NCBI GenBank assembly: GCA_026214975.1
Contig: CM047815.1
Coordinates: forward strand, 61,263,852-61,327,851
DNA from: Gentiana macrophylla
Taxonomy: Eukaryota; Streptophyta; Magnoliopsida; Gentianales; Gentianaceae
Direction of reading: 5' to 3'
DNA: 64,000 nucleotides
Shown here: positions 36,470 through 60,951 of the stretch, piece after piece
Layout: each line of letters begins with the position of its first letter
How positions within the stretch are numbered: position 1 is the first letter of the stretch
Made by a program: the position numbers and the translations under genes
Notes under the pieces: generated by a model
What the model saw: only the letters and a program-made list of their open reading frames with translations
What the model was told of the DNA's origin: nothing
The model's database searches: none

Positions 36470-36474
36470 ATACA

Positions 36475-38477: not shown

Positions 38478-41400
38478 CTATGCCTCAGGTAGAGTTAGGT
38501 TGATCTGGTGTACTCTGAATCCTAGACGCATGTACAACTGTTTGAATTCTTCCAGTGATTCTTTTGCTGATGTAGTAGGTAGACTTCTTCCACCTCTTCC
38601 ACCTCTATGTGAAGCTCTTAAAGACATAACTCTAGCTTCCCAGAACTTAAGTCCTAAAAAGGAATTTAGCCCTGCAAGGAAACCCTTGTCATGGTAAGGT
38701 CTCCTCTTATTGTAGTATTGCTTCTTATATTCTTTAAAGAGGTCATCACAATGAAATGCCACCAGTGCGTGTTCTCTCGAATGCATTTGTATCGACCTCC
38801 CATTTATTTTGAGCAAAAATTCTTGCAAACCTCTTTTGCTACTGTTGTTTGACTCTCTTCCCCCTTATTGACATCATCAACAAAACAGGAAAACAGGCCA
38901 TGAACACTCTCTTGTGTGATCACTAAGTTGTTTAGTTGACCTTCCATAATATATGTTCTAGTGTCAACTGCAGTGATCCTTCCTTCTAGTTCTTGCTCCA
39001 GCAAATTGATCCTCTCAGTGACTTTAGGTTCCAAAGCAGCAGGTTGAGATGTTTCAGCAGGGTCAGCCACAACAGGCTTGTGTGCTTCAGTAAGGTTGTC
39101 AAGCTTTTTTTGAATGGAGGCAAACTGTTCTTTCAAGAACTGTTCCTTGAGAGTATTGCCTTGTTTTATACCTCTCACATCTTTGGTTAGATCAGCAAGA
39201 GCAAACTGAGTGGATGTGATGTTGGAAGCAACTGTTTCAGTAGTCCTCCTCTATTTTCAACCAAGTTCATCAAATCTTCAAATCTTTGTTCTTTTCTATT
39301 GAGTTGAGTTCTTAACTGTGTAATGTCATTTCTGACTGCCCTCAACTCATCCAAAACATGTGTTGGTACTGCACCAGCCATAACTCCATCCATGTGTCCA
39401 GCAGCATCATCAGCAGGCTCTTCAACATTGTAATTTTCCCTCTGTCTGCTGACAACCATGGCCCAACTCCTATCCCTTCCAGCAGGGTCAGGACCTCCTT
39501 CAACCATAGCACCAAAAATATCTTCCAAAATGGGATCTTGTGCTGGTTGAGGTTCCAAGATAGGTTCTTCTTCAAAAAATTGTACATTTGCCTGTTGAGG
39601 TTCATCAGCAATTATTTCTTCCTCAGGCACTTGAAACTCCTCATCACTGAAATCATAGTCCAGCAGCTGTTCATCCTCATCAACAGCAGTCTGCTGACTA
39701 TCCTTTCCATCAGTAGCCTTTACTCCAGTAGGCTCTACTTTAGTAGCTTATTCTTCAACAATTGCAGGGGATTCCTCCAATCCTATTGTAAGTTCCAACC
39801 TTTGTCCAGGTGTTGTCTGATCCTCAGCAATCTGTACCTCCAGTTCCGACCTTTGTTCAGATGCCGTTTGTTCCTCAGCAACCTGAACCTCCTCAAAATG
39901 TATGGGTGATCCTTCCAACCCCATCACCAAATCCAATCTCTATCATATTACTGTTTGTTCCTCAGTGATCAAGACTCTTTGTACAAGAATTTCAGGAAAT
40001 GTTGCCATATTTTCCTCTAGAAATCCTCTAGCATTAGTAATCTTCTATAGAGTATCAACAGTTTTAGATAGTGTGTCATGAGTATCAATCCACTCCTAAT
40101 ATTGAACTGAATCCTCAGAACTGATGTCAGGCTCACTATGTGCAATGACAGTCTCCTCACCCAAATTTTCAGACTGTTTGTTGTCAATATTTCATCAGAT
40201 TCCACAACAAATAAAGTATCAGACGTTCCAACCAGCCTGTTATCTCTAAAATTTATTCCATCATTGATTAGAGCCTCCAAATCATTTATGGTTAGATCTT
40301 CCAGATCTTCATCTATTTGGTCAATTTGCTGGCCCTCAGCAGACTTGGCAGCACCAGTAGACTGTTCTACTCTTGGTTCAGTGGACAATGCAGTTCCACT
40401 GGCTTCTCCGTGATGTGTAGGATGATCATCATCAGAATCTGATGATGATGAATCATCATTGTCTGGTGCATCCCTAGGGTCTTTAAACCGGATACTTCCT
40501 TCTCCCTTTTCTCCTTCAATGATTTCCATTAACCTCATTTCCAGGAAGGAAGTATTAACCAAATCAAGTAGATTTTCAACTTCTAACTTTTCAAAGGCCC
40601 ATTCCTCAAAATCTGTTATTGGCTCAGCAGCTAGTTTTTATTTCTTAAAATAGCCAAACTTCCATTGAAAGTAATCAAAGAACCAAATTTGAGTTTGGGA
40701 TCTACATACCCTTCTTTCCTTTTCTTCTCCTTCCTTTCAAAAGTCATTCATGGCTTTCTAGGAGCTATTTGATCAGCTTGTTGTCCTCCAAAGGTCTCAA
40801 CAAGCAAATTCAGTGTTTCCTCAGCAGATTCCATCAGGTCAGTAGGCTCCTCAGATAGTAAATTTGTCCCCACTACCTCCATCTGCTCAACACTAGGTTC
40901 CTCCTGACTTACATGCTCATCAGCAGGGTTAGCAAGAGATTTCTCTTCCCCCTGAATTATTGCAGAAATGGCAGGGTCTTGTACAGTTGTATCAATTTTC
41001 ATAGCAGGTGCAGATTCAGTGGTCTTCTGTGGTTCTTCAGTAAGTTGCTCAACAACAACTTCTCCAGCCTCAGTAGGCTCAACAGCCTTTATAGATGCAG
41101 ATTCAATAACTGCCACAATAGGTTCTGGTTCAGCAGATTTGTGTGGTGCTTCACCCTGTTGTTCGGCCTCCACCTCGATAGTTTCCACAATAGGGTCTGC
41201 AGAGCAGCTTTTCTCGACATGGTCTTTGTGATTCTTCAATGTGTTGCTCAACAACAACACCAGCATCAGCATTAGGCTCAACAGCCTCTTCTCCTGTTTC
41301 CTTTTGTTCCTCAATAATTCTTAACTCTTTGCCTTTTCCATGCTTTTTCTTCTTAGAAATCTCTTTCATTCTTTTTGATGGTCGTTCAGTTCTAATTTCT

Positions 41401-42458
41401 GCAGATTTTCTCTTTCTTTTATCTTTCTTCTGTTGCTCTTTCAAGATTTCAGCAGCAGACTTCTTCTTTACAACATCAGTAGGGTCAGTAACTTCCACTT
41501 CAACTTGACCCTCAGTAGACTCAGCAGTCTCCACTGATTGATGTCTTGTTTTCTTAGGCTTTAGCATCTCAGTAATCTTTCTAGTATCGTTGAGCCTTTC
41601 TCTTCTCAAGAGAATTTTCTTGGATGCAGCAGATTTAGCAACTTGTTTAACCTGCTCACCACCAGCATCATCATCTCCATCATTGTCACTTTCTGTCTTT
41701 TCAGTGTCCATTTCTTCATCAACATCCAATCCAGGGATGAGATAACCGATCTCCTTTTTGTATCTAGATTTGTTGATCTTTTCTGGTGCAACATCAGCAA
41801 CCCTCAGATGAGTCAGCAGGGCCTGAATCACCAAACCCAAAGGCAGTGTTTTGGACTTTCTTGTCCCTTCTCTTTCCTATGTTATCACTTTCTTCATATA
41901 TTGGACAAAGAATCCAGCCCAATCAAACTTCATGCTCTTGCATATGATGATCAGTAGATCAATCTTGGGTCCTGATAAAGTGTCAAGACTATCACTGAAT
42001 CCTAAAATTTTCTTGGCTATAATCTTACTCAGCAGATTATACTCCATCCTGATATGCTTCACATTGATACTCACTGAGCACTTAATGGATTTGTTGGTCT
42101 TTATCATGTCAACAAAATCTATTCTTGTCAGCCCCATTGATCCAGGATTTGTAGGAGCATTGTTTCCAGGTCCAAACCCAAACACTTCCCTCAGCAGGTT
42201 TGAGGAAATTTCAATCTCCTGGCCATTAACTGTGGTAGTAAATGCCTCTCTATTATCTCTTATCACAATGTTTCTCCAAAAATTTGCAACATTCGTGTAG
42301 GAGATGCTTTCCAATCTCAGATTAAGAACTTCCTCCAGTCCTTCGTATCTTCTGATTATTCTACCAATATTTATAGCCAACTCAGTGTTATTAGCATCAA
42401 CAACAAATCCTCTGACACTTTGGCTCGTTCCAATGTGAATATCATCCTTGTCCGCCAT
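38478..42458 (-). pseudogene. Copia-2 extra region after pol: large hydrophilic protein with plant-transposon-type N-terminus
   Basis: A chain of minus-strand frames (42458-41877, 41840-41151, 41314-40748, 40562-40017, 39936-39748, 39630-39187, 39178-38804, 38828-38478) looks like one decayed reading frame of about 1300 codons. It starts 'MADKDDIHIGTSQSVRGFVV'. The first 190 residues include 'NFWRNIVIRDNREAF' and 'LREVFGFGPGNN', in the style of Pfam 'putative plant transposon protein' (PF20167). The next part is K/E-rich with possible nuclear-targeting clusters ('SKKKKHGKGKE'), then acidic Pro/Glu/Ala repeats, and last a coiled-coil-like part ('LNRKEQRFEDLMNLVEN'). No membrane segment is seen, so an envelope role is not supported. 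Confidence 0.6.
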
Positions 42459-43109
42459 TAGAGATGTAAAATATGAAGAAGAAAACTTTCAAATCTGTGT
42501 TCACACAAAGTATTTTCGTGAGAAAACGATCTAAAAGTTGTATGTAATGTCTCTGTATGTATCTCGCATATATAGAGAGTAGTAGTGGTAAATCGCCGAT
42601 AAAGTGATGTACGTGCCATCGTAGCATTAACCACGATTAAAGTAGGAATAAATGTGATGTTGCCACGTGTCCCACTAATTGATTCCATGAGAGTTGTAAC
42701 CGCTGGATATTTGTAATCTGCGTTATAAAGGATAAGAATAATATCCAATTCATCGTTGACTTTCATTTAAGTTTGACTGCCTTGTAACGTATAACTCAAA
42801 GAAATTGAGTTTCATGAGACTGGATCGGCAAATGGTGACAAGAATGGCTCAAGAATCACGACACAAGAATCTCTGATCTTCTTGTATCCTTGTTTTGTCC
42901 AACTGATAATACAAGATGAAGTTTAATACCAATGACTGATCTGTCAAATGAGCTCACCCAACAGGACAAAGACCAATCCCCTTGGCAACTTCATTTGCTC
43001 AATTGTCCAAACACATTTAAGTACATGGAAATGTTGATACCAATGACTAATCTGCTAAGTGAGCTCACCCAACATAGCAAAGACTAATCCCCTTGGTGAA
43101 TTCCAAGAT

Positions 43110-44283
43110 TCATTGATTATGAGGTATATCACCAACTTTTATACTTCCAAGTTCGGGCCTTAACTTAGCAAATCTTTCACTATCCAAAGGTTTTGTGAAA
43201 ATGTCAGCAAGTTGATCTTCAGTAGGGATATAAAGAACCACCACATCTTTCTTTTCAACATGATCTCTTATAAAATGATGTCTCACATCAATATGCTTGG
43301 TTCTTGAGTGCAAAACAGGATTTTCTGTGATTGCAATTGCACTTGTGTTGTCACACATTATGAGAATTTCTCTTTCTTCAATTCTATAATCCCTTAATTG
43401 TTGTCTTAGCCAAAGTATTTGTGCACATCAACTTCCAAAGAAGAATGTATTCACCTTCAAGAAGTGAAAGTTGATATTGAATTATGTTTCTTGCTAAACC
43501 AGAAACCAATCCTATTTCCCAACAACTATGTGTTTCGTAGTGCTTTTTCTATCAATCTTGCATCCGCATAATCGAATCTGAGTAGGATATAACTTTGAAG
43601 CTTCCATCTTTTGAATACCATATCCCTACTCCCAAAGTCTCTTTTAGATACTTGAAAATCCTTTGACTCAAAAATAGATGACTTTCCTTTGGTTTTGATT
43701 GAAATCTTGCACAAACACCTACAACAAAGGATATATCAGTCTGTTTGGGCAAATGAGTCTGACAAGAGATCGCCTATCATCCTTATGTATAAAGTCTGAT
43801 CAACATCTTTACCTTTTTTATCTTCATCCAATATAATGTTTGTACTCATAGGAGTTGATACCTTGGTGTTGTTTTCCATACCAAACTTCTTCAGTAGCTC
43901 CTTAGTATACTTGGTTTGATGAATGAAGGTTCCATCTTTCATTTGTTTGACTTGTAATCCCAAAAAGTAGTTCATCTCTCCCATCATACTCATTTGGAAC
44001 TTGCTTTTCATGAGATTGGCAAACTTTTCACATAGCAATTCATTTTCAGAACCAAAAATTATGTCATCAACATAAATCTGTACTCAAAGAGGTGTCTCTC
44101 CTTCATTGATTCTGAAAAGAGTCTTATCAATGGTACATTTGGTAAAACCATTGTCCACCAAGAATTGAGATAGGTCTCATACCATGCTCTTGGTGCTTGT
44201 TTCAAGCCATAAAGTGCTTTATTGAGTCTCAGACACTTTATCTTCTTGATCTTTAACTTCAAAACCAGGAGGTTGTTGAACAT
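43110..44283 (-). pseudogene. Copia-2 reverse transcriptase and RNase H
   Basis: Minus-strand frames carry 'ALYGLKQAPRAWYETY' (44283 onward), a YVDD catalytic box at about 44060-44075 in a shifted frame, 'MSMMGEMNYFLGLQVKQMKD', and RNase H ending 'CDNTSAIAITENPVLHSRTK'. The RNase H 'EAEYIAA' region near 43430-43480 is unreadable because its CAG/CTG-containing codons are altered. Further breaks occur near 43740 and 43530. Confidence 0.85.
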
Positions 44284-44562
44284 AAACCTCTTCTTCTAGA
44301 AATGCCATTCGAAATGCACTCTTGACATGCAGCTGGTATACTTTGAAGTTTTTGTAAGCAGCAGATGCCAAGAATAATCTTATAGCTTCCAATCTTGCAA
44401 CTGGGGCATATGTCTCATCAAAATCTATTCCTTCTGCTTGAGAATAGCCTTTTGCTACTAGTCCGCCTTATTCCTCACAATGGTACCAGATTCATCCAAT
44501 TTGTTTATGTATACCCATTTTGTTCCAATTATATTTGCATGATTAGGCCTTTCCACTAGTGT

Positions 44563-45865
44563 TCAAACTTGATTTCTTTCAAATTCATTCAATTCTTCTT
44601 GCATAGCAATTATCCAATCTGGATATGATATTGCTTCTTCAACAACTTTAGGTTTCATTTGAGATAGAAAACAAGTAAACATTGCTTCCAATTGTCTTCT
44701 AGTCCTTACACCTTGTTGTATATTGCCAATTACTTGCTCAGCAGGGTGATCCCTTAACCATTGAAGATATTGGTTTGATTGATTATCAGGAACATCATCT
44801 TCAGTAGGGTCTGTTGTTGCTTTAGCAGGGGGTTCAGCAGATCCTTGAACTGCCTCGGTTGTTGCATCAGTAGTGTTATCAGCAGGGTGTTCAGCAGGGG
44901 CAGAGTCAGAAACTTTCAAATCATTTATCCTTTCCAAAACATCAACACATTCTGGATCAGTGACTTGTTGATTCTCAGCAGGATCTGAAGCTTCATCTTC
45001 CATTCCTGTAAACTTAGGTTCATCAAATACAACATCTATTGTTTCTTCATGTTTCAGTGTTCTTTTGTTCAGTACCCTGAATGCCTTGCTGATAGAAGAA
45101 TATCCCAAGAAGATTCCTTCATCTGATTTTGGTTGAAAGGTCTTCAATTGTTCCTTATGATTCAAGATAAAACACTTGCTTCCAAATGGATGGAAATAGG
45201 ATATATTAGGTTTCCTTCCATTCCAAATCTCATAAGGTGTCTTCAGCAGCTTCTTGTTCACTGAGGTCCTATTTTGTGTATAGCATGCTGTATTGACTGC
45301 TTCAGCCCAATATCTTTCAGGTAATAGAGCTTCATAAATCATGGTCCTTCCTGCTTCTTTAAAAGTCCTGTTTCTTCTTTTAGCAACCCTATTTCGCTGA
45401 GGTGTACCAGCAGCAGCTAATTGATGTAGCACACCATTTTGCTCACAATATTCTCTTATAACTTTATTGAGAAATTCAAGACTTTATCCTCGATCCGATC
45501 TTCACTCTCACAAACTTTTCTCATTCTCGCAATCTTTTCAAAAGTTCGGGCATCTTTTGAAGTGTTTCACTTTTCTTGTTCATGAATACTACCCAAGTGT
45601 ACCTTGAATAATCATCCACAACTACTAGAGTGTACTTCTTTCCTGTTACACTAGTTGGTGTTACTGGTCCAAATAAATCCATATGCATCAGCTCTAAAAC
45701 TCTCTTTGTAGATTGTTTGGTCTTTGACTTGAAGCTTGATTTTGTTTGTTTACCTTGCTGACAAGCATCACATATAGCATCCTTTTTGAATGTGATCTTA
45801 GGTAAACCAATCACCAGTTTCTTTTTCACCAACTGATTGATATCATTAAAGTTTAGATGATTCAA
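44563..45865 (-). pseudogene. Copia-2 integrase and linker
   Basis: The integrase zinc part ('ICDACQQGKQTKSSFKSK') and core ('LMHMDLFGPV', 'VVVDDYSRYTWVVFM') lie in 45865-45521. The C-terminal part, 45432-44563, has 'AKRRNRTFKEAGRTMIYEAL' and 'ERYWAEAVNTACY', then an acidic linker to the RT. The frame breaks between 45520 and 45433. Confidence 0.9.
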
Positions 45866-45892
45866 CTTCTTATGCCATAATCAATTTAGTTC

Positions 45893-46402
45893 TCACTTGG
45901 TATGCACAATCAGGCATGTCTCTGGAACAGCAGTAGACCAATCCATAACATACATGTTTTGTTGTCTTTTTCCAGCCAACACAACTTGATCACCTCTTTC
46001 ACTAATGACAATACATGTGCCTTTGTCAAAAGTGACCTTGTAACCCATGTCACAAAACTGTCCAGTGCTCAGTAGGTTGTAGTCCAATCCTTCCACAAAT
46101 GCAACATTCCTGATGGTTAATCCATTTCTCACAAGTGTGCCATACCCTCTTGTGTATCCTGGTGTGTTCTTGTTGCCAAAATTCACTCTTGGACCATCCT
46201 TTGCCATGTAGTTTGTCAAACAGTGCTTATTCTTTGTCATATGTCTGGAACATCCACTGTCAAAGTACCAGACACCATACAAAACAAAGTTAATGTATTT
46301 TAGGTACCCAAAACTGTTTGGGTCCATAATGGTCAGTGGTAAGCATGACCCTTGGCAAATTTCCATAAGGTCTTCTTTCAAAAGTATTGTACTTTTGTTC
46401 AT
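45893..46402 (-). pseudogene. Copia-2 aspartic protease and pre-integrase segment
   Basis: The active site reads 'VWYFDSGCSRHMTKNK', the copia form with D-S-G. Downstream 'GLDYNLLSTGQFCDMGYKVT' is typical of the segment before integrase. The protease cuts the Gag-Pol polyprotein. Confidence 0.9.
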
Positions 46403-47189
46403 ACATGTATTCTACACATCCATAAGGTCTAACATTTGGTTGTGTAGGACTCACATATGCTTTCTGGCCTTTTGGTATGTAATGCTGCTTTGAGTGATTT
46501 CTATTGTTAAGCACTAGCATAACCATGGGTTTGTCATCTCATGCTAGAGCAGCACTTTCAGAATATGAAGTCTCACCGAGGTCCTGCAGAGGTCTTGTAT
46601 AAGTCCTCTGCTGAGTCCTCTGCTGAGACCATTGCTGAGGTTTTACCCTAGAAGTATGGTTATGTCCATTGTTTCTAGCAGTAAGTGTAGGAATATTACA
46701 ATCATCATCAGTAGGGAATAATCTACCTTTCCTCTCGAGATAAGTGCCCTAGAATGATTAACATTTTTAGGTTTTGGATTCTTATCCTTAGAATATTTCG
46801 ATTTTTGCCCTTTTGTGGTCCAAATAGACTTGGTAGCAGTCCGCTATCGCTGGTCTTGAAGGTACAAATAGCCTTACTCTTAGATTTATTCTTTTGTTAG
46901 TAATCGATGTCCTTTTGACTTCCGATTTTGCCTCTTTGAAGCATTCTCGTTGAGGTTTCACTGTCTCAGCAACCTTTTTGGGAGTTGGATCTTGTGCAGG
47001 TACAAACTTAGGACCAATTCTGGTACAAGGTTCAGTAACCTTACTGGATCCACTTTTATTAGATTGTTGAGTTCCAAATCCAAGGCCTGTTCTATCACCA
47101 TAAGGCTTTCCAGATTTGAATGCAATGGAGGAACAAGATTGTTCAGCAGATTCAGCAGCTCCTAAATGTACAGCAGACTTATGTTGATT

Positions 47190-48599
47190 CTATCCAAGCT
47201 CTTCTTCCTTTCCCTTGAGAATTCTTAATTCAGCTTTTAACCTTTCAACTTCTTCTTGAAGAGCTTCTTTTTCAGCCTTCACAATCTCATAGCCAGATTG
47301 TATTGTCCTCAGTTGATTAAGGATGGCATCCAAAGTTTCTTCATTGTCAGAATATTTAGGATTTGAACCACAAGTTGATTCACAATCACTTTCAAAGTAG
47401 GAGTGTTTATAGATACGCACTGTATACCTCCTCCTGCTTCATCCATATTTGCCATTAAAGCATAATCATCCATATCGGCAAATAAGTGCAGATCATCCGA
47501 TTCATTTCCTTTTCCTCGACTCAACTTCATATCCTCGATTCATCATCAAGAACCATTGCTTTCTTGCCAGTCTTCTTTGTCGATTCTTGTTCTTCAAGAG
47601 TCCGACAATCAGTCCGAAATGTCCAGGCTTCTTGCGCTTGAAGGAAAGATAATCGTGTTCTTTTTCTCGCTTTTAGTTCAGGGACGATCAGTTTGAAGTG
47701 TCCTGGTTTCTTGCATTGAAAGCACAAGTAATCATTGTCTTTCTTGGATTCCTCATTCTTCTTTTCACTAGATTTCTTTGTGAAATTCCTTGAGATCCCT
47801 TCCGCTTTTCATCATTCGATCTTCTTTCTCAAGAGGGAAATTTGCTCTTGCATCTCATCCAAGAGATTATCTTGAGCTCCGATGTTTCTTCTTGATGTGT
47901 AGCAGACCAATGCAAAGGGTCGTTGGTTCTTCCTTTTCACCTCGTGTACAAGTTTCTTCTCAATTCATAAGCCTTGAGATCTGAAAATAACTTGAAGGTA
48001 TCCTCTTCATGTACACTTCTTATTTCTTCTATTGCAGTCACCTTCATTTCCCAAACTTCCTTTGCAGGTAGAGCTTCTAAGATTTTTGAGTTGATTTCTT
48101 CTTTTGAGTAGTTTACACTCAGTAGGGTGAGTTCATCCATGATGGCATTGAATCATGATTCCATTTGTTCAATGGTTTCAATTGGTTTCATTTTGAAATC
48201 TTGGAACTTCTTCTTTGCCACACTGATTTTGTTCTTTTCTATTGCATCAGTGCCCTCACAGATTAATTGTAACTTATCCCAAAGTTCCTTTGCAGTCTTG
48301 CAATCTTTCACTTTCATGTACATATTTCTATCCAAGGTTCTATATATGATATCAATAGCAATATTGTTGAGGTTTGCTCTTTTTCTATCTTCAGCATTCT
48401 ATTCTCTTTTTGGTTTTGGAATGTACTGAGTTTGACCATCTACAGTTATAGCTTTTGTGATTTCAAATGGTCCATCAGTCAGCACATCCATCATCTCATC
48501 ATGTGTTGCAGCTTGAATAGCCTGCATATGACGTTTATACTCATCAAAATGATCTAAAGAACACATCAACATTGTTCTAGCATACTGGTTGTTATCCAT
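47190..48599 (-). pseudogene. Copia-2 gag with two successive zinc-knuckle-like motifs
   Basis: The gag starts 'MDNNQYARTMLMCSLDHFDE' (48599) and continues in broken frames with 'MYMKVKDCKTAKELWDKLQL' and 'LLSVNYSKEEINSKILEALP', the UBN2-type gag domain. Near 47725-47560 two knuckle-like motifs follow each other; the first reads 'CFQCKKPGHFKLIVPELK', where the last cysteine is lost at a site that should hold GCAG. A coiled coil ('EKEALQEEVERLKAELRILK') ends the region. No intact frame remains. Confidence 0.8.
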
Positions 48600-48691
48600 G
48601 ATGCAAAGCTTTGAAAATCAGAAACTAGTAAAAGTTTTCTAAGTATTTTCTCAAGCACAACAAGTAGGATTACTTCAGAACAGAAGCACTA

Positions 48692-48702
48692 CTCTGATAC
48701 CA
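48692..48702 (-). promoter_or_regulatory. Primer-binding site of Copia-2
   Basis: On the minus strand it reads TGGTATCAGAG, two bases inside the 5' LTR end. Confidence 0.9.
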
Positions 48703-48704
48703 AT

Positions 48705-50164
48705 TGTTGGTCCCTTGAAAAAGGCTTTGGTTAAGTTTAGAGGGGGGTGAATAAACTTAACACTTAAAACTTTGGAGTTAACAAACTCAGCAAGTTCGAA
48801 GAGCTCTTCCGATCGCTCCACTCGATGAGTCTCACTAACTGTTGATTTTACTTGAATTTGTTGCAGTGGAATATATTCAAGTTAAGCCTTATTACTTGTT
48901 GTAAAAATATGATACCAAGTATTAGATACTCAGGAGTGTAAGTGTGTGATTCAGTTGCTAGTTTCAGTAGGTTGATGTGCTTAATATACTAAATGCAGAA
49001 AGTAAATACAGAAAGTAAGTAGGCAATTTTTATAGTGGTTCCGTGTGGTGTAATCTGTCACCCACTCTTCTCCGTGATGTTGGAGGTAATTCACTGTAGA
49101 TCTTTGAGGTTGCGCTTAAAAATCCCTAAGTTGTCTGTCCTTCACCAATAACTATGGCTTCACAAAGTGAACACTTGAAACAGGTAGGATTGTTGCTCCA
49201 AAGTATTCCACTAGTCCTTGATGTAACATGATAGTAGGTTACACTTGAAGAATTTACTAGATCGGTAGCTTTAAGCTCAGTAACATCAGCAGGGTGATTT
49301 CTTGATAATAATCTGGTAGCTCAAGATTGATTGTTGTTTTTCATCAAAATTCATCATTTGTTTCTGTATCAGGGGTCTTCTATTTATAGGTGAGAATCCT
49401 TGTGACTTATGTTTCAAATTCAAACATAGCCGTTTCAGATTTGTCCCTATCATGACTTGCATTCTGTCCCTGTACATAGTATTGACACTTGTATCCATTG
49501 GATAAACCTCTGTTTTTTTCCAACATTCTTTTAATCTTGACCATTGATTTGTTGACAGAATCAAGAGTTGTTATCTATCCTTATCCTTGTAATCTTCCAA
49601 TGTAACCTTTGATTAAATCGAAATATGCTCAAAGATATTCCAGTTGTATGTAAGTCTCATTGAAATACTTGTCGATCACCGATCAAGTTTGTTGTGTTTT
49701 ACAAAACACTTCAGCTGGCTGTCTTTTATCTAACTTTTAATTGTGAAGTTAGATTACACCAATTTGAACATAACTAAGTTTCAATCACCACTTAACTTAT
49801 GGAACTTAGATCTTGTACACAAGGTATATGTAATCAGTTTAGGTCATCACAGACTTCCCTAAATTCTGATTCCATATCCTTGACTTTAAATACTAAGTTT
49901 GATCCCTTAGCCTTCAATAACTAAGTTTGAGCCTCACCTTCCGATCTTCAAGAGTTCCTAAACTAGTCTCATCGACAAAGGTACCTTATCGACTTAGACA
50001 GTGTCTCACGATGAAAGTCACCGACCTTTACAATGCTTGTTTGATCAAACCTATACAAGGATCAAACTCTAATTAGCCTATACATTTAATCTAGACATAT
50101 TTTTGCCTTTGCTCTATTACAGCTAGTCTGGCACTCATCACTAAAACTTAAAATATGTCCAACA
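48705..50164 (-). repeat. Copia-2 5' LTR (1.46 kb)
   Basis: Matches the 3' LTR, lacking about 200 bases. In 49930-50035 nearly every CAG or CTG of the partner copy (37925-38035) is changed while the intervening bases agree. Confidence 0.95.
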
Positions 50165-50169
50165 ATACA

Positions 50170-52368: not shown

Positions 52369-53151
52369 TCATTGATATCTAATATATGCCAGCTGCAGTT
52401 GGTCTCCAAGAAGAATGAGGCCCAGATCTCTATCAATCCCTCCCATGTGTATGATGCTAGATTGCTGAGTTGTGCTTGCTTTTTTAGCCAGGTAATCCGC
52501 TTCCATATTACCTTCTCTGTAAATATGCATGATCTGATAATGACGTTGATGAGCAAGGGAAATCATATGTGAGATCTCAGCAACATGCTTCCAAGGGGCC
52601 TGAATGATACCATGCATCATATCTACAAGCTGTTTAAAGTCGTTTTCAATTTCAACCTGTTGCAACTGCAAGTCAATATTGTGTTGTATGCCAGATTTAA
52701 GAGCTCCTAATTCAGCTTCAAAGTTAGTTGCAACCCCATAAGCTTCTGAACCAGCAAGAACAAGATTGCTTTGAGCATATCTCATAATAAACCCCCCACC
52801 AGCTAAGCCTGGGTTATGTATTGAAGAACCATCAGTGTTGAGCTTATAGAAAGAGTGAGAGGGGGAATGCCATTTGACAGCAATAGCAGATTTTTTTGGT
52901 CTTGGATCAAGGTGCTTTAGAACACTAGAGCTAACCAAAATGTGATCATCATTATACTTTTGTGTAAGCTTCATTTTGTGGCATGTGTATTGTAGATCAA
53001 TAACAATGCTTTTAATAGCTTGATTGGCTCCCAAGTCCTCATCATATATTGCATTACATCTACTCTTCCAAAGTCCCCAAAAATGATAGAGGGCAGAATT
53101 CGGATTACCTTCCCAAGGGCCCCTTTGATCGGTGTATTCCACCAGATGCAT
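52369..53151 (-). pseudogene. LINE RNase H domain
   Basis: A 260-codon open frame. RNase H acidic residues sit in 'LNTDGSSIHNPGLAGGG', 'FEAELGALKSGIQ', 'ENDFKQLVDMM' and 'EGNMEADYLAKKAS', the expected D-E-D-D order of the plant RVT_3 type. The catalytic set looks complete. It is the best preserved piece of the LINE. Confidence 0.9.
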
Positions 53152-53214
53152 TGGACTTCCTGCACAGAATCAGCAGCATGAGAGTAATTAAGGGCATTTT
53201 GAAAAACCCCCATA

Positions 53215-53463
53215 CTACCTGTGCCCTAGTGCATTCCCAGAAATCATGATTAAGTGTATCCTCCTGATAGCAAAAAGGGCACTTGAAAGGACCATAGAAG
53301 CCCATTTTTTTATTCGATCAGCAAAAGGCAAAATCCCATTGTAGAGTTTCCAGTGAAAAATAGAGATTTTGAGTGGAACATATAGCTTCCATACTTCACC
53401 CAGTTCATATAGAGATGCTCTTTTAGCTCTAAGCAATTCATAGGCTGTAGAAACTGAAAACAA
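53215..53463 (-). pseudogene. LINE zf-RVT segment
   Basis: The minus strand reads 'ELGEVWKLYVPLKISIFHWK' and, in a shifted frame near 53300-53220, 'CPFCYQEDTLNHDFWECT', the cysteine/histidine part of the zf-RVT domain. A frame break near 53290 separates the two. Confidence 0.85.
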
Positions 53464-53481
53464 ACCAGAGCTGACAGGAGT

Positions 53482-54249
53482 CTATACCCATTTACCTATA
53501 CGAGCTGTCAAATAAAGCATGTGTTGTTCTATATCCTCTTGAGCAGGCCCAAAGAATTTCCAAGCATAGAGTTTATAGAGGGATAAGAACTCGCCATCAC
53601 ATTTCGAGCTCAAAGACTTTGTCAAGATGGATTTTCCACCACAGCTTACATCCAAGAGCTTCCTGAAAGTTCGATACTTCCGACACCAAGGCCATTCTCG
53701 TGAGGGGGAAACATATGCTCGCTCCAATTTTTCCAAAGGTCGTCTTTTATGTTGATCACAATCATGCCACGTAAAGTTAGCCATAATGTGCTCCAGCTTT
53801 TGAATGGTAGTAATGGGGAGTTTGATAGCTGCCATAATATTTATAGGTACAGAGGAAAGAACATGTCTGATAAGGACTAACCTACCCCTAGGGGACAAAT
53901 ATTTATTGTACCATTTGTTGAGCTTCTTTTCAAATTTGTCAATTAAAAACTGAAAGTAAGAAGATTTTGCACGTCCATAAAAAACAGGGCATCCAAGATA
54001 AGTAAAGGGGAAGTTTACTTGTTGCATACCTGTAAGAGCCTGAACACTTTGTATAGTGCTCAGTGGCGCTTTGCCAGACATAATGAAAGAGCTTTTCCCT
54101 TTATTGACTTTTTGTCCCGTGGCTTTCTCATAAACATCCAAGAAGTTTGCCATATTGGTCATGGTTTTCCTAGCAGCTCTAGCAAAAATGATGAGATCAT
54201 CTGCATAAAGGGAGTGAGTAACAGGGGCAAAGCCAATAGGAGTAGCAAT
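53482..54249 (-). pseudogene. LINE reverse transcriptase, C-terminal part
   Basis: The RT catalytic box 'YADDLIIFAR' lies at about 54207-54178, only some 40 bases from the truncation point. Downstream are 'KATGQKVNKGKSSFIMSG', 'TYLGCPVFYGRAKSSYF' and 'LSPRGRLVLIRHVLSSVP', typical of plant LINE RT thumb regions. The fingers and most of the palm are absent because the LINE is 5'-truncated. Confidence 0.9.
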
Positions 54250-54705
54250 AGGATTCTATTTACACGGTAACTGTTTCACATGAAATGTAGTAGACATTGC
54301 ATTTGACTTTTCGGATGATTGGGGGTCACGGTGTGTTGCTAGACGCTATTCCGTGATTGTTAGGTATGAAGGGCATTTTCGTAATTTGCACTTTGTGCCT
54401 CCGGCCAACATATTCGGAAGCCTATCGGGTGACACACATAAGAACATCTAGCCGGATTAAAATGCGGTTATAGCGATAACTAAATAAGGAAAGTTTATCT
54501 CGACTATAAAGGGTTATAGTGGTAAATTAATATTGTGGTATTTATTTATTATGAATAAATAAAATACAAGATATTAATTATATTGATTAATTAAATAATA
54601 TTCTGGATGCCAATTTATTGGCATATGGGCGCCATATTTTAAGTGCGTAGGATACACTTGGATTATGCAATTTAATTAATGGTATTACTGTATATTAATA
54701 TTAGA

Positions 54706-54710
<5 letters not shown>

Positions 54711-54759
<49 letters not shown>
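54711..54759. repeat. (AT)n microsatellite at the left viral junction
   Basis: About 24 AT units separate LTR sequence on the left from Rep-derived sequence on the right. Confidence 0.95.
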
Positions 54760-54761
<2 letters not shown>

Positions 54762-54799
54762 CAAATGACATCTTCCATATCGATTGGTTGAGCGATTAA

Positions 54800-55433
54800 A
54801 ATAAGTAAGTTTGGGTAACTTACCAAGAACAAATTTTGTTCTACCCAGTTAAGGAGTTCTTGGGGGACATTTACAAAATTAGTCCAAATGGGTTGATATT
54901 CAGGAAGGGTTTCAGGCCATTTGGAATTGGCTGCATATTCCAGATTCCTAAGCTGAGTTGCCCATGTGTATGGTTGCTCAGTCTGTACTATGGAGAGGAA
55001 ATCGGATTTGGATGTAGCCTCGTGGATAATCGTTGACCAGATGTCATCACGATTCTTCTTAGGGCTTCTTCTAGAAGCCTTAAGGTTTCCTCTTTCCTCA
55101 AAAGTTCCCCATTGGCGATGTAATGCAGAATACCAGCATCATGTCTAAGGACCTCGAGTATCGGGGTGATATGTCTCAGAACCCATTGGGTTCTTTGATG
55201 TCGGCAGTACAGTGGGTCCTCGTGTCAAACTTCTTTCCAAGTTGAACGAGGCAATGAAGGTGCGGTTCACCGTCCCGGTGTTTTTCAGTACATAATCTGC
55301 CATAATAAATATGAAAATCTTTAAGTAGATTAAATAAATAATCTCATACGAATAAGGGTATTAATGGGCAATGTGGATAAGTTAAAAAAATAGATTTTCC
55401 CTGTAATCTATACGAAACGTTTCTGCGAGGCAT
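54800..55433 (-). pseudogene. Geminivirus-like Rep, N-terminal half (left copy)
   Basis: Rep nicks the origin and starts rolling-circle replication. Starting at the ATG at 55433 the minus strand shows motif I as 'FLTYPHC', motif II as 'PHLHC', and motif III as 'YIAN', where family Rep has Y-x-x-K, so the lysine is replaced. Later residues include 'WSTIIHEATSKSDFLSIVQ' and 'WATQLRNLEYAANSK'. An in-frame TGA follows 'PLIPLFV' and at least two one-base shifts follow. The coding part ends after about 200 residues with 'TTCTTGGTAAGTT', which resembles an intron donor. The oligomerisation end and helicase domain are absent. Confidence 0.88.
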
Positions 55434-55649
55434 GTTTAATGTAGAGATAGAGAGATAAAAGGAAGGATTGATTTCTGAAAATTGGATCTTACTATGGTTT
55501 TGCGGAGGATGAAGGGGCATTTATAGTCCCCCCTATAACTCATAAAAAATCTCAGTCGTACACGTGGCAAAACCATATAATATTACTGGTTTTGCTTCTG
55601 GCCGACATGCGGGTCCACCCACGTGGCTACAGTAAAGGAAAGAGGCATA
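54966..55649. repeat. Left arm of the viral inverted repeat
   Basis: These roughly 684 bases are the reverse complement of 57829-58508, with scattered substitutions and one-base indels. The arm holds most of the Rep fragment, its promoter region and the origin hairpin. Rep sequence continues leftward beyond the arm to about 54800. Confidence 0.9.
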
Positions 55650-55895
55650 AAATGCCAATTAAGTCTTTCATTTTTCAAACGCAATTATTACCTTTTACTG
55701 TTGGTTAATAGTAAAAAGCAGTAACTTTTATTGTTGATAAATAGTAAAAGCCATAAAATTAAAATGAAGTCTGGCATCTTTCAAACGAAATCATCACTTT
55801 TACTGTTCAAAAAGTCACTTTTTACTGTAGCACGTTACTTTATATTGATTAGTAACAGCTTTGTCACATTTTCTGAGAAAAACATTTACAATACA
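55434..55895. promoter_or_regulatory. Viral intergenic region between Rep and movement protein
   Basis: This divergent region holds the origin hairpin. Towards Rep, the minus strand has a TATA-like 'actataaatg' near 55520 next to a G run (GGGGGG), where geminiviruses usually carry Rep-binding iterons; a true iteron pair was not proven. CACGTGG G-box words occur at 55561 and 55620. Towards the movement protein, the plus strand has short A/T repeats ('ttttactgtt...aatagtaaaa') at 55690-55830. Confidence 0.55.
55567..55595 (+). other. Geminivirus-type replication origin hairpin (left)
   Basis: GCAAAACCA (55567-55575) and TGGTTTTGC (55587-55595) pair perfectly over 9 bases. The 11-base loop TATAATATTAC contains the invariant nonanucleotide TAATATTAC at 55578-55586, where Rep cuts between the seventh and eighth base. 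Stem and loop are complete. Confidence 0.93.
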
Positions 55896-56759
55896 ATGGA
55901 GATTGTTGTAGCCGAAACGGTGTCGGGTGACTATGAGACTGATTGTACGGATATCAAATCAGGTTCTACTGTTGAGTCTGTTAAATTGAAATACCCAAGT
56001 TTTATTGACAGGGCATTTAACAAGTAAAAGAATATGTCGGTGATGATCGACAGTTGTCTGTTGATGTACAGACCCCAGTGTCCAATGAATTCTGAAGGTT
56101 GTGTTAGAGTTAAGGTTTACGACAACAGGTTATGTGAGCCTGATTGCAAACAGGCCGAGTTCGTCTTCCCAGTATCATGTTGTTTGAACATGACATTTTA
56201 TGGTAACGCCTATGCCAGTTTGAATGACAATGAGTGTCCATGGTCAATTACATATGTTTTGGAAAATGCTAATATTAAGGCGGATGTCAATTACTGTAAG
56301 ACGAAAGATTTTCTGAAATTATCAACAGTGAAGAGGCCCAATGAATTAGCATTTAGAGGTCCTGTAATTGACATCCGGTCTAAGTTATTCAACAGGGATA
56401 ATGTTGATGTCTGGCACTATGGATATAAGAAGCCCACTCTGAGCCGTTGCCTCAGTGCTCGTCCTGACAACCTTGAAAAGCCCAAGGCTATATCTTGTGG
56501 ACCTGGAGATTCCTTTTCTGATAGGAGGTCATCATTTTGTCATTTGGGTCGGCCCAGTTTGTGTGAGGTATTTAGTACACCCTCAGAATCAAAAAATCTA
56601 ATTTATGGCACTGTTGAGCCTAGTAAGAGTGTTGGGCCCATGAGCAGTGATGTATCTACGAAGCGTGATGTGGAAGCTGAACTGAAGATTCTTTTGGAAG
56701 CTGAGAAAAATAAAATTAATTATGGTATTACGTGTACTGCAAGTAAACATTGTTTATAA
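55896..56759 (+). pseudogene. Geminivirus BC1-type (30K) movement protein, one in-frame stop
   Basis: From ATG 55896 to TAA 56757-56759 one frame runs 287 codons, matching the roughly 290 aa of begomovirus BC1. The only break is a TAA at 56025-56027 (codon 44), followed two codons later by an ATG in the same frame. Family-like stretches are 'MIDSCLLMYRPQCPMNSEGC', 'DNECPWSITYVLENANI', 'LKLSTVKRPNELAFRGPVI' and 'VDVWHYGYKK'. Proteins of this group move viral DNA through plasmodesmata. Preservation is striking for a fossil: no frameshift in 860 bases. Confidence 0.85.
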
Positions 56760-56783
56760 CTACTATTATTTTCTTCATGTTGT

Positions 56784-57074
56784 TTGATCTATTACATGGA
56801 AGAAATCTGTGTACGTTACAATTATTGGATTCTACTCTGTTTATTTTCGGCACTTTTAAATATAGTAGCTCTATTAAATGGGTTCACGTATATACGATGT
56901 GGACGAATATGCCAAGAGTTAGGAAGGATTAAGAGCGATGTGCGTAGATCAATGGATTTCGTCACAATTGGAACTCTTAAAGGCTTGTCAAGGGACAGGG
57001 GGGATTTTTGTTTGTCACGGACCCCTGTTCTTAGGCCAGAGGAATCCATCTCTGTTAATGGAAAGGTTGGTTAA
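56784..57074 (+). CDS. Small ORF with a membrane segment between movement and coat genes, 96 aa
   Basis: It begins 25 bases after the movement-protein stop. Residues 15-34 ('WILLCLFSALLNIVALLNGF') are a clear hydrophobic span, followed by a basic stretch. Monopartite geminiviruses carry a small virion-sense protein just before the coat gene, and in mastreviruses it has a central hydrophobic segment, so this could be such a V2/MP-type protein. No sequence family is recognised. The frame is open end to end. Confidence 0.45.
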   Translation: MIYYMEEICVRYNYWILLCLFSALLNIVALLNGFTYIRCGRICQELGRIKSDVRRSMDFVTIGTLKGLSRDRGDFCLSRTPVLRPEESISVNGKVG

Positions 57075-57264
57075 ATTCCGTTCTATTAATCACAGATTCA
57101 GTAAAGAAAAGGCAAAATATTGGATTAAGAAGCAGAAAACAGAGGTAGATGTTAAAAGCCTCTGCAATGTCATCAACGAACAAAAAAATGAAGGATTTTT
57201 TGGCAGCCAAACGGAAGTTGGCGTATGCAAGTGTAAGCAGGAATCTGTTTGGAAAAGTTCCTAG
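56938..57264 (+). other. Second overlapping ORF upstream of the coat gene, 108 aa
   Basis: This frame overlaps the end of the small hydrophobic ORF and the start of the coat-protein frame. It contains a lysine-rich part ('KEKAKYWIKKQKTEVDVK'). In many geminiviruses a small virion-sense gene overlaps the coat gene in just this way, but no family match is visible. It may be chance. Confidence 0.25.
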
Positions 57265-57840
57265 GAACTTCTTCAGGTCTACGTTTAGAAGACCTATTTT
57301 GCCTTACAAGAAAAAACTTTTTATAGACAGAAGAGGTTTGCAGAAAAGAGGTTAAAGACAATTCATGAAAAATGAGGCAATTGATCAGAGTGGAGTGTGT
57401 AAGTTAGTAAACAATATTAATCAGGGTACCAGTTCAAATCAGAGGGTCGGTCATGATGTTAATTTATATGCCCTCAACATTAAGGGCAAGGTGATTTTGC
57501 ATACATGCCCAGCACTCTCAGGACTTCATGTATTATGGTTTTTAATTGTTGATAAAAAAAACCAAAAGCAACATCATCTGAATCTTTGAAGTTGTCAGAT
57601 ATTTTCGATATTTATGATGATGAACCATGTTCAGCAATGATTAAGGAAGACATGACAGACATATTTAGGTTATTAAGGAAGGGTGTGTATTGGCTGACAA
57701 TGCGTGGCTCTACATCTGTAGGGCAGAAAGATTATTTTTGAAGGAGTATTGTGATAAGAGTATATTAGTGAAGTATGGTGGTGCTACAAATGGGACAGTT
57801 GATAATATTCATGAGAATGCTTTGTATTTATGCCTCTTTC
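57149..57840 (+). pseudogene. Geminivirus coat protein/NSP-type gene, broken and 3'-truncated
   Basis: The frame opens at 57149 (or an in-frame ATG at 57167). It has a basic N-terminus ('RNFFRSTFRRPILPYKKK') as expected of a DNA-binding capsid or nuclear-shuttle protein. A TAA at 57353-57355 interrupts it and the same frame resumes at 57356. A shift in the A run near 57555 leads to 'LSDIFDIYDDEPCSAMIKED', the most family-like stretch, and another shift near 57690 leads to 'VDNIHENALYLC'. The inverted viral repeat begins at 57829, so the last 20-30 residues are lost. Coat protein and NSP are related, and I cannot decide between them. Confidence 0.72.
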
Positions 57841-57882
57841 TTTTACTGTAGCCACGTGGGTGGACCAGCATGTCGGCCAGAA

Positions 57883-57912
57883 GCAAAACCAGTAATATTA
57901 TATGGTTTTTGC
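57883..57912 (-). other. Geminivirus-type replication origin hairpin (right)
   Basis: On the minus strand TAATATTAC lies at 57900-57892. The stem is the same as in the left copy except for one extra T in one arm (TGGTTTTTGC), which makes a one-base bulge. Confidence 0.9.
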
Positions 57913-58045
57913 CACGTGTACGACTGGGATTTTTTATGAGTTATAGGGGGGACTATAAATGTCCATCCATCCTCTGCAAAACCATAGTAAGATCCAATTT
58001 GTAGAAATCAATCCTCCCTTATATCTCTCTATCTCTACACTAAAC

Positions 58046-58508
58046 ATGCCTCGCAGAAACGCTTCATATAGATTACAGGGAAAATCTATTTTTTTTTAAA
58101 TTATCCACATTGCCCATTAATACCCTTATTCGTATTAGATTATTTATTTAATCTACTTAAAGATTTTAATATTTCTTATGGCAGAGTACGTACTGAAATA
58201 CACCGGGACGGTGAACCGCACCTTCATTGCCTCGTTCAACTTGGAAAGAAGTTTGACACGAGGGACCCTAGGTACTTCGACATCAAAGAACCCAATGGGT
58301 TACAGACTTATAACCCAAATACTCAGGTCCCCAGACATGATGCAGCTGTTGCAGATTACATCGCCAAGGGGGGGCTTTTAAGGAAAGAGGAAACCTTAAG
58401 GCTTTTAGAAGAAGCCCTAACAAGAAACGTGATGACATCTAGTCAACGATTATCCATAAGGCTACATCCAAATCCGATTTCCTCTCCAGAGTACAGACTG
58501 AGCAACCA
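58046..58508 (+). pseudogene. Geminivirus-like Rep, N-terminal fragment (right copy)
   Basis: From ATG 58046 ('MPRRNASYRLQGKSI') the frame breaks at a T run near 58088-58097, one T longer than in the left copy. The shifted frame carries motif I in the form 'FLNYPHC' and, without an internal stop, 'RDGEPHLHCLVQLGKKFDTR' (motif II at 58216-58239), then 'VADYIAKGG' (motif III, Tyr codon 58357-58359, Lys kept). A G-run indel near 58370 shifts it again. It ends at 58508. It is shorter than the left copy but better kept over motifs II and III. Confidence 0.88.
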
Positions 58509-58589
58509 TATATATATAATACTTATGTATGCGTGTGCACTAGTGTAAATTAAACTAGTGATTTGCATTCACAAGCGCACGTAGTATGC

Positions 58590-58668
<79 letters not shown>
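58590..58668. repeat. (AT)n(GT)n microsatellite at the right viral junction
   Basis: TA units (58590-58605) pass into about 31 TG units. Between the viral arm and this tract (58510-58590) lies a short imperfect hairpin with 'actagtg' words. Confidence 0.95.
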
Positions 58669-58669
<1 letters not shown>

Positions 58670-59271
58670 TATATACACATGTGTAAATTGATTTATGGTA
58701 ATATAATAAAAGATATATTCAATATTGGATATTGATAATATATATCTTGAAAATATTTAATATAAGATATTGAGAATTTAATGAGATAAATCTAGAATAT
58801 CTATTTTTCTTATTTTCCAAGTAAAATGTTTTCTTTCTCATTAATCTACTCAGAAGCTTTTCCCAATCAGATTTGGACTAGAGGGGGGCGCACCACTCCC
58901 TATATAAACAAGGAGTGCCAAGCTCTTTGCTCATCAATCACAATTAGAAGAGTTCTAATTTATTAGAAAAATTGAAAGATTCCTAGAGAGAGATTTAGAG
59001 AGAGGGAAAAGGCCAGTCTAGCAACCGGACTTTTCTAGTGGCAATCCAATGGTGGATTACGGCGGGTGGACTAGCGGTAGAGGCCGACCGTTTGGGCGGC
59101 TCCGTGCACCACTACTCTCCTTAGACGGTCAAAGCGTCGATCTTTTAGATCAAGCAAGGTAACCACCGTCTACTAGCTTATTATGTTTGTTGCTTAAATG
59201 AAGTCGATCCTGGTTAAAGGAAATAAATTTTTGAATCCGCTGTGTTCCCGCATAGATTTCCTAACAAATAT

Positions 59272-60951
59272 TCACCACCCCTATCAAATCTCACAATCTT
59301 AATCTTATTTTCCTATTGATTCTCTACTTCTGCTTTGAAAACTTTAAAGACATCAAGTGCCTCACCCTTTTCAAACAAAAGGTAGACATACATGAATCTG
59401 GAAAAGTCATCAATAAATGTGATAAAATATTTTTGTCCATTAAGATACGGGGGTGTGAATAGTCCACATATATCAGTGTGTATGATCTCTAACAATTGAG
59501 AACTTCTTTTGGCACCTTTAGTGGACTTGTTTGTCTACTTTCCTTTAATGCATTCAATACAAGTTCCATAGTCAGAAAAATCTAGAGCTTTTAAGCACCA
59601 ACCTTTTAATTATTTCAATGGAGATATGTCACAATCTCCTATGCCAAAGTCGTTATAAGTTCTCATTAATGATGCTACTCTTATTGCCAATTTCACTAGT
59701 GTGCAAAGATAACAAACTATTCTCAAAAATAGAATCTAGATGAATTTTGAATAAATTTCCATCCAAATAACCAGAACCAATAACTTTATTAAATTTCAAA
59801 ACATCCACAACGTTATTATGAAAATGAAAACCAAAACATAAACGGGAAAGTCTTGAAACAGAAATAATGTTCTTAGAAAACGACGGAACATAAAAAATGT
59901 TTTCCAAAATCATATGAAAACCAGACTTCAAAACCAGCTTGTAACTTCCTACTCCCTCCACATGAGAACGCATCTTGTTTCCATAATAGATGTGTAGCTC
60001 ATTTTCCTTTGGTTTCCTAAGGTTTAAGAATCCCTGCACAGTATTGGCAATGTGAATTGTACAACCAGAATCAATCCACCAAGTATTATTCGAAATGTCA
60101 GCATAAAGAGATTCATGACACACAAAAATAAGATTACTATTCTTCTCAAGCCAAGACATAAACTTATGGCAATATTTCTTGAAATGGCCCTTTTTCTTGC
60201 AAAACAGACATTTGTCTTTCTAAAAGTTAGCATTCTTCATAAGGACAACCTTTTCGCCTTTGCTTTTCTTGAACTTATCTTTGCCGGTTCTCTTCAACTG
60301 AGACACCAAATGGGCACTTTCATGTGTCTCAGCCTTCGGCCTCTCTTCCTCTTGCACACACATGGTCAAACAATCATTAACATACCACTTTTCCTTCTGT
60401 GTGTTGTATGATATCTTAAAAGGCCCATTTTCAGGAGGAAGAGAGTTCATAATGAAGTGAACCAGAAACGCATCGGTAATCTGAATCTCCAGATTATTTA
60501 GCTTGGCAGCAATGTCCATCATCTTCATGATGTGCTCACGCCGCAGGCGTTTCTTTTCATGCACCATTGATGATAGTTTTTCATTGGGGCACTCCCAACA
60601 CTTCTCGAGATGCGATAAGTCTGTGCTTCAACAAAGCTGACCAAGTGGATTTCGCTTTGCCTGTATCAGAAATGGAGCTCTTAAATGGCTTGGAATTTTA
60701 GACTTCATGAGCATCAAACTTAAGCGATTAGATCGCTCCCACCGCTCATAAGCCAATTTCTCTTCTGGCGTACTTGATTCCGTAAGTGCTGGTGGAGCAT
60801 CCTTACGGAACGCCAAGTCCAAGTCTGTACAACCCAATGTCAAGAGAATGTCCTCTTTCCATTCACCAAAATTTTCACCAGTGAGCATTGGAATGACGGA
60901 TGAATCAAAAAGTGCAGTCGTAGGATAATCTGTCAATGACCACGACAACAA
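59272..60951 (-). pseudogene. Host copia: gag, protease and first half of integrase
   Basis: The minus strand begins with gag ('IPMLTGENFGEWKEDILLTL', 60951 onward), then 'LNNLEIQITDAFLVHFIMNS', a zinc knuckle 'CLFCKKKGHFKKYCHKF' near 60220-60165, the protease site 'WWIDSGCTIHIAN', a pre-integrase part ('ENIFYVPSFSKNIISVSRLS') and integrase ('LEIIHTDICGLF', 'FITFIDDFSRFMYVYLL'). Breaks lie near 60620, 60220, 59640 and 59500. At 59271 it stops at the solo LTR; the integrase continues in phase at 50974. Confidence 0.93.

What the first reader, a model, noticed from the sequence alone, without database searches (positions are those of the whole stretch)
54762..58510. Endogenous geminivirus-like element carrying a BC1-type movement protein gene
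A perfect stem-loop with TAATATTAC, Rep motifs I, II and III, a 287-codon BC1-type movement gene and a coat/NSP-type gene stand together in plant nuclear DNA. Known endogenous geminiviral sequences in plants are, to my knowledge, mostly Rep/origin fragments, so a virion-sense movement gene of nearly full length would be unusual and may be undescribed.
Basis: partly seen in the sequence, partly recalled or inferred. Interest (0 to 1): 0.96.

Follow-up and report, generated by a model that had tools for sequence, protein, structure and literature searches.

The report
Fossil mosaic geminivirus, inverted and broken
What is likely plant chromosomal DNA holds the broken remains of a geminivirus whose replication gene resembles one branch of the family and whose movement gene resembles another, with the replication end repeated in reverse; it is likely a few million years old, and endogenous geminiviruses with movement genes are already described, so it adds a likely new variant rather than a new kind.

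Summary
About 54760-58510 is geminiviral: a Rep/RepA part, a TAATATTAC stem-loop, a BC1-type movement-protein (MP) frame (PF00845, E 5.8e-39) and a coat-protein remnant lie in virus order. No LTR pair touches the element; a LINE-like remnant and Copia fragments flank it. The novelty claim fails as worded: PMC7758297 found domains of other geminivirus genes (movement, coat) at 1,601 of 2,165 endogenous Rep loci and labels BC1 on Camellia transcripts. What may be new is the combination: the Rep is 62-66% identical to capulavirus and topilevirus RepA, while, in the papers seen, monopartite viruses with such an MP are citlodaviruses, whose published Rep motifs differ. Most likely: a decayed, rearranged, captured genome of an unsampled mosaic geminivirus, roughly 3-7 million years old if the arms began identical. 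Host species, copy number and transcription could not be tested.

The parts
54705..54759 (.). (AT)n tract directly outside the left viral end
   Evidence: sequence read directly
54760..55433 (-). left Rep/RepA remnant (N-terminal motif I, central domain, part of the RepA tail), broken by stops and frameshifts; no SF3 helicase part seen; left border approximate
54969..55651 (+). left arm of the inverted repeat (Rep part, intergenic region, origin)
55567..55595 (+). virion-strand origin: perfect 9-bp stem with TAATATTAC at 55578-55586
55896..56759 (+). BC1/BL1-type movement-protein frame, 287 codons plus final stop, one internal in-frame stop at 56025-56027, no frameshift seen
57149..57836 (+). 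coat-protein remnant, homology in three frames with in-frame stops, cut at profile position 219/244; homology shown for 57362-57836, start at 57149 by reading only
57827..58510 (-). right arm of the inverted repeat, 93.4% identical to the left arm in ungapped columns (91.6% counting gaps)
57892..57900 (-). second origin nonamer, stem reduced to 7 perfect bp
58072..58548 (+). right-arm Rep N-terminal frame (158 codons, the last ~12 beyond the end of the arm) with motifs I-III and a GRS-like stretch by eye
58511..58667 (.). right flank: TA-rich run next to the viral end, then (AT)n(GT)n microsatellite
52369..54255 (-). LINE-like remnant (RVT_1 below its cut-off, zf-RVT, RVT_3) left of the element
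59262..60627 (-). Copia remnant (gag, Pol_BBD, integrase, the last below its cut-off) right of the element; likely the same Copia resumes at 50898 and below

Best explanation
This is a broken, rearranged copy of a geminivirus genome lying among transposon remnants in what is likely a plant chromosome: a Rep/RepA gene most like capulavirus and topilevirus RepA among the proteins searched, an origin, a BC1-type movement gene and a coat gene stand in virus order, the Rep-origin part is repeated in reverse at the far end, and the whole was likely captured by illegitimate DNA repair a few million years ago and is predicted to make no working virus. Shown: the domains, their order, the inverted repeat, the lesions, and transposon fragments on both sides. 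Inferred: (1) the parent was a monopartite, mosaic geminivirus larger than 3 kb; (2) the head-to-head duplication arose during viral replication or at capture; (3) entry was by end-joining at an AT-rich tract, since both viral ends touch TA runs; (4) decay since then has been close to neutral; (5) a read-through transcript of the two arms would fold into a hairpin, but no activity is shown.
For: Pfam: BL1 134.8 bits, AL1 70.7, AL1_M 63, coat 34.0, further coat piece. Rep right-arm frame against RepA of Tomato apical leaf curl virus 66% over 103 residues (152 bits), Euphorbia caput-medusae latent virus 62%, Trifolium virus 1 62% (genera), but 43-64 bits against the six solved Rep sequences found. 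Left Rep centre 54% and 53% identical to the first two, running on into the last part of those RepA proteins, so the copied DNA was likely unspliced (inference). MP 52% and 50% identical to two unnamed proteins, one of 305 aa on a 3609-base contig. Arms 632/677 identical, with lesions that differ between the arms. Copia-type integrase sequence ends at 59262 and Copia sequence resumes at 50898 in the same orientation. No other match in the window for the pieces or for P0003/P0004 (tblastn E 0.01, blastn E 0.001).
Against: Citlodavirus RepA (287 aa in PMC11053556) was outside the length range of the Rep search, so the capula/topile assignment rests on high identity and on published motifs of one citlodavirus compared by eye, not on a tree with all genera. 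The coat protein could not be assigned to a genus and its best piece barely passes the Pfam cut-off; a PDB search with it gave no significant match. That the Copia fragments on both sides are one element is inferred. No empty site, no reads and no host genome were available (genome search did not complete). The MP frame has no frameshift although 3.8-5.7 indels would be expected at the arms' pace (6 gap events if neighbouring gaps are merged by eye, 9 as aligned; P about 0.02-0.003, post hoc), which mildly disfavours purely neutral decay.
Confidence: 0.72

Rival explanations
1. It is a plain endogenous citlodavirus-like element, such as the Clade 3 elements of Ericales, with a Rep of that lineage as well as the MP.
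For: A virion-sense BC1-type MP of about this size is the citlodavirus mark (PMC5923463, PMC11053556); Clade 3 elements in Camellia carry BC1 and are sister to citlodaviruses in the Rep tree (PMC7758297). The span of about 3.07 kb (54760-57826), with parts missing, would fit a 3.6-3.9 kb genome.
Against: The Rep is 62-66% identical to capula/topilevirus RepA, whereas PMC5923463 gives 25-32% between citlodavirus Reps and those of other geminiviruses; motif III (DYIAKGG) and the GRS-like stretch differ, by eye, from those published for one citlodavirus. Citlodavirus and Clade 3 Reps themselves could not be compared.
Confidence: 0.2
2. It is an endogenous begomovirus DNA-B (BC1 plus NSP) next to DNA-A pieces.
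For: PF00845 is the BL1 family and PF00844 covers coat protein and the nuclear export factor BR1.
Against: MP and coat-type frames are on the same strand, downstream of the origin, with Rep on the other side of the same origin; in begomovirus DNA-B, BC1 is complementary-sense (PMC8000510, PMC8540022, passages).
Confidence: 0.03
3. It is viral contamination or an assembly chimera, not chromosomal DNA.
For: No read data were available.
Against: The Rep, MP and coat frames are all broken, the two arms differ at 45 of 677 aligned columns with separate lesions, and Copia fragments in the same orientation, likely of one element, stand on both sides.
Confidence: 0.03
4. The host has kept the element for use: a hairpin RNA from the two arms, or a re-initiated MP fragment, acts against related viruses.
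For: 13 perfect paired runs of 21 nt or more, 404 of 683 arm positions; MP frame free of frameshifts.
Against: No expression data; the 2.2 kb spacer is long; one stop in the MP is what neutral decay predicts.
Confidence: 0.06

Closest known systems
Endogenous geminiviral sequences of Camellia and other Ericales, Clade 3 (PMC7758297)
   Same: Geminivirus DNA in a plant genome with rep, coat, BC1-type movement gene and TAATATTAC; 75% of the endogenous Reps in that survey are shorter than the shortest free-living one.
   Different: Published Clade 3 Rep is sister to citlodaviruses; this Rep is closest to capula/topilevirus RepA in what could be searched. The sections and passages read do not mention an inverted duplication (the word 'inverted' does not occur in the main text). 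Direct sequence comparison was not possible.
Citlodavirus (CCDaV, CaCDaV, PCMoV, apiscitlodal virus)
   Same: Virion-sense BC1-type MP on a Rep-bearing genome; MP frame 864 nt against 888-921 nt.
   Different: Rep type; decayed and integrated. Order of coat and MP genes in citlodaviruses is not stated in the text read.
Capulavirus and Topilevirus
   Same: RepA N-terminal part 62-66% and central part 53-54% identical; motif III DYIAKGG shared.
   Different: Topilevirus ToALCV has a V2 that groups with curtovirus and becurtovirus movement proteins (PMC5770407, passage), not a BC1-type one; for capulaviruses the lack of a BC1-type MP is recalled.
Olea europaea geminivirus DNA-B (PMC8000510, PMC8540022)
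   Same: BL1-domain MP in the virion sense.
   Different: MP on a separate component without Rep.

Membership tests
Geminiviridae | TAATATTAC in a stem-loop between diverging Rep and virion-sense genes | tested here: met
Geminiviridae | Rep with HUH motifs I-III | tested here: met
   Gemini_AL1 domain; by eye motif I in both arms, motifs II and III in the right arm
Geminiviridae | Rep SF3 helicase domain | tested here: inconclusive
   no helicase match in the pieces scanned; the Rep stretch ends at the left border inside the RepA-like part, before such a domain would be reached
Geminiviridae | Geminivirus coat protein | tested here: met
   34.0 bits against cut-off 33.9, plus two sub-threshold pieces in profile order; no significant PDB match
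Endogenous geminiviral sequence | Viral DNA flanked by host DNA | tested here: met
   LINE-like remnant left, Copia right, Copia again further left; not checked on reads
Endogenous geminiviral sequence | Presence across accessions or species, copy number | not testable with these tools
   The genome search did not complete
Citlodavirus | Virion-sense BC1-type MP on the Rep-bearing genome | tested here: met
Citlodavirus | Citlodavirus/becurtovirus-type Rep | tested here: not met
   closest to capula/topilevirus RepA; published motifs of one citlodavirus differ by eye. Limit: citlodavirus RepA could not be a candidate
Citlodavirus | Genome of about 3.6-3.9 kb | tested here: inconclusive
   about 3.07 kb span with coat end and Rep C-terminus missing
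Capulavirus/Topilevirus | Rep/RepA of that type | tested here: met
Capulavirus/Topilevirus | No BC1-type MP | tested here: not met
   BL1 domain E 5.8e-39; absence of such an MP in these genera rests on one passage for ToALCV and on recall
Begomovirus DNA-B | Complementary-sense BC1 opposite virion-sense NSP, no Rep | tested here: not met
   strands and order

The most novel reading that the evidence does not exclude
The element is the fossil of an undescribed genus-level geminivirus line that joined a capula/topilevirus-type replication module to a BC1-type movement gene, and its head-to-head Rep-origin arms give the host an inherited hairpin RNA that makes siRNAs against that line's replication gene and origin.
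Probability: 0.06. Interest if true: 0.75.

Novelty: new variant of a known kind. Interest (0 to 1): 0.42.

Why it matters
If the mosaic reading holds, BC1-type movement genes were carried on single-component genomes by more than one replication lineage, which bears on the published idea (PMC5923463) that citlodaviruses are intermediates towards bipartite begomoviruses. The inverted duplication gives a built-in clock for the insertion and a concrete, cheap test of whether plant genomes keep viral inverted repeats as small-RNA sources.

Tried and rejected
Begomovirus DNA-B origin: rejected on strand and order. LTR-joined element: not supported; the LTR-like pair at 36475-38175 and 48705-50166 lies over 4 kb away. 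Other geminiviral pieces in the window, including at the two other TAATATTAC (17659 and 17783): none found at the thresholds. Target-site duplication: the longest shared word at the viral ends is a 16-nt AT run, and no shared word of 8-25 nt was found at the borders of the larger 8.3 kb block. IMG/VR searches with the MP, the Rep piece and two alignments gave no confirmed locus; the last alignment held three named geminivirus RepA proteins and also found nothing (confirmation was against the window's Rep piece), so that collection is probably uninformative here. The search of the host genome did not complete. Rfam: nothing at gathering scores in the window. The sigma-70 promoter scan does not apply to plant DNA. 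PDB searches with two coat pieces and the Rep centre were not informative: no match for two, and for 57356-57589 only matches at E 0.05 or above, led by unrelated immune-receptor chains with a capsid chain (6ek5) at 0.08. No structure prediction was run.

Not decided: the host species; whether published Clade 3 sequences are the same line; the coat protein's genus; the order of coat and MP genes in citlodaviruses, which the text read does not state.
Full report
What is there. Ten stop-to-stop frames from 54701-58548 were scanned against Pfam and ten (one of them a repeat). Four pieces pass Pfam's own cut-off: Gemini_AL1_M (54701-55138, minus), Gemini_BL1 (56028-56759, plus, E 5.8e-39), Gemini_coat (57356-57589, plus, only just) and Gemini_AL1 (58072-58548, plus). 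Sub-threshold pieces continue the coat protein (57556-57741, E 0.0024; 57669-57851, E 0.0056) and the Rep start (55344-55520, minus, E 0.09). Unrelated families appear at E 0.016-0.09 in the same calls, so these weak pieces count only because they follow on in profile order; for the Rep start, comparison with a named RepA is stronger (22 of 29 residues). The stem-loop at 55578 is perfect over 9 bp; its mirror copy at 57892 keeps 7 bp; the other two nonamers in the window have at most 3 bp.

Structure. Repeat search and alignment show that 54969-55651 and 57827-58510 are inverted copies: 632 of 677 aligned columns identical, 45 mismatches of which 22 are transitions, and 9 gap events (91.6% identity counting gaps). 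The single-copy middle fits the left origin: Rep runs leftwards on the minus strand, then origin, then MP and coat genes on the plus strand, which is the geminivirus layout (recalled). The right arm begins at 57827, within 10 nt of where the coat homology stops at profile position 219 of 244, so the joint cuts the coat gene. The left part spans about 54760-57826 (3.07 kb) and lacks the coat end and the Rep C-terminus; the parent genome was therefore larger than 3 kb (inference, if that stretch is one uninterrupted piece of virus).

State of the genes. The MP frame reads from 55896 to 56759 with one in-frame stop at codon 44 and no frameshift. The coat frame has two in-frame stops and its homology runs through three frames. 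Each Rep arm has lesions that the other lacks, so those lesions arose after the arms separated. If the arms began identical, their distance of 0.070 corresponds to about 2.7-7 million years at 5e-9 to 1.3e-8 substitutions per site per year (rates recalled); if they came from two viral molecules, that is an upper bound. At that pace 1.16 stops are expected in the MP frame and at most one is seen in 68% of simulations, so the near-complete frame needs no selection; the lack of frameshifts is less expected (P about 0.02 with 6 gap events, merged by eye, or 0.003 with 9; chosen after the fact).

Relatives. The MP piece finds one protein among 101 candidates, P0003 (305 aa, 3609-base contig, 52%), and P0003 finds one other among 598, P0004 (50% to the window piece, 58% to P0003). 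No named citlodavirus or begomovirus MP came up, so the database probably lacks them and the MP's genus could not be tested by name. For scale, the MP of PCMoV is 55-57% like those of two other citlodaviruses and citlodavirus MPs are 43-46% like a begomovirus MP (PMC5923463, section 10). The Rep frame of the right arm finds RepA of Tomato apical leaf curl virus (Topilevirus, 66%), Euphorbia caput-medusae latent virus and Trifolium virus 1 (Capulavirus, 62% each), 3 hits among 24 candidates, at 147-152 bits, against 43-64 bits for the six solved Rep sequences found (the call names the molecules, not the viruses). The capulavirus RepA itself scores 62-94 bits against those six. The left Rep centre is 54% and 53% identical to the first two and runs into the last part of those proteins, which suggests that unspliced DNA was copied. 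The length limits kept citlodavirus RepA (287 aa) out. Against that, the motifs published for one citlodavirus (section 3.2 of PMC11053556) differ by eye from those in the window, and citlodavirus Reps are only 25-32% like those of other geminiviruses.

Surroundings. Left of the element is a LINE-like remnant (zf-RVT, RVT_3, and RVT_1 below its cut-off). Right of it a Copia on the minus strand runs gag, Pol_BBD, integrase down to 59262. Copia sequence in the same orientation resumes at 50898, and reverse-transcriptase sequence at 36474, the latter exactly outside the LTR-like pair that begins at 36475. The simplest reading, not proven, is one Copia split twice, once by an LTR element and once by an ~8.3 kb block holding the LINE-like remnant and the viral element. 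Both viral ends touch TA-rich runs. A PTR2 transporter gene in two frames at 14076-16915 and the mobile elements fit a plant nuclear genome; the species is unknown.

Literature. Ten searches, the whole cap: 'citlodavirus', 'endogenous geminivir', four further term sets on endogenous elements, capulavirus with BC1, inverted-repeat viral elements, and two on individual citlodaviruses; several lists were capped (for example 12 of 1,160 and 12 of 107). PMC7758297 was read in sections 19, 20, 23, 24 and passages; it already reports endogenous geminiviral loci with coat and movement domains and BC1 on Camellia transcripts. PMC5014472, PMC8626973, PMC5770407, PMC8540022, PMC8000510, PMC8705360, PMC12758780, PMC10850569, PMC10167294, PMC8428138 and PMC11359110 were seen in passages; PMC5923463 and PMC11053556 in passages plus one section each. 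In those lists and passages I saw no report of a capula/topile-type Rep beside a BC1-type MP, nor of an endogenous geminivirus with head-to-head arms; supplementary tables, where such elements may be listed, were not available.

Verdict. A real, decayed endogenous geminivirus; ordinary as a kind, likely new as a combination of parts and in its inverted structure.

Noticed in passing
27710-32894: A Copia element with nearly identical terminal repeats (96-nt and 160-nt blocks at 100% and 99%) and two long frames (566 and 652 aa); likely a young insertion.
   Followed up: no
36475-50166: An LTR-like pair about 12 kb apart (seven blocks, 85-97% identical) with Copia domains between; it appears to sit inside the same Copia that the viral block also splits.
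   Followed up: partly
55561-55568 and 55620-55627: The word CACGTGGC stands on both sides of the origin stem; it could be an iteron or a G-box (names recalled).
   Followed up: no
14076-16915: PTR2/POT transporter gene split into two frames, likely by an intron.
   Followed up: no
4683-5539 and 35202-35432: Short, imperfect repeats of about 86-89 nt in three and two copies.
   Followed up: no
55896-56759: The MP frame has no frameshift while the coat and Rep frames do; weak hint of slower decay, or chance.
   Followed up: partly
protein P0004 (JGI, 4618-base contig): An unnamed 208-aa BL1-type protein with seven member sequences, shorter than P0003; may come from another endogenous copy.
   Followed up: no
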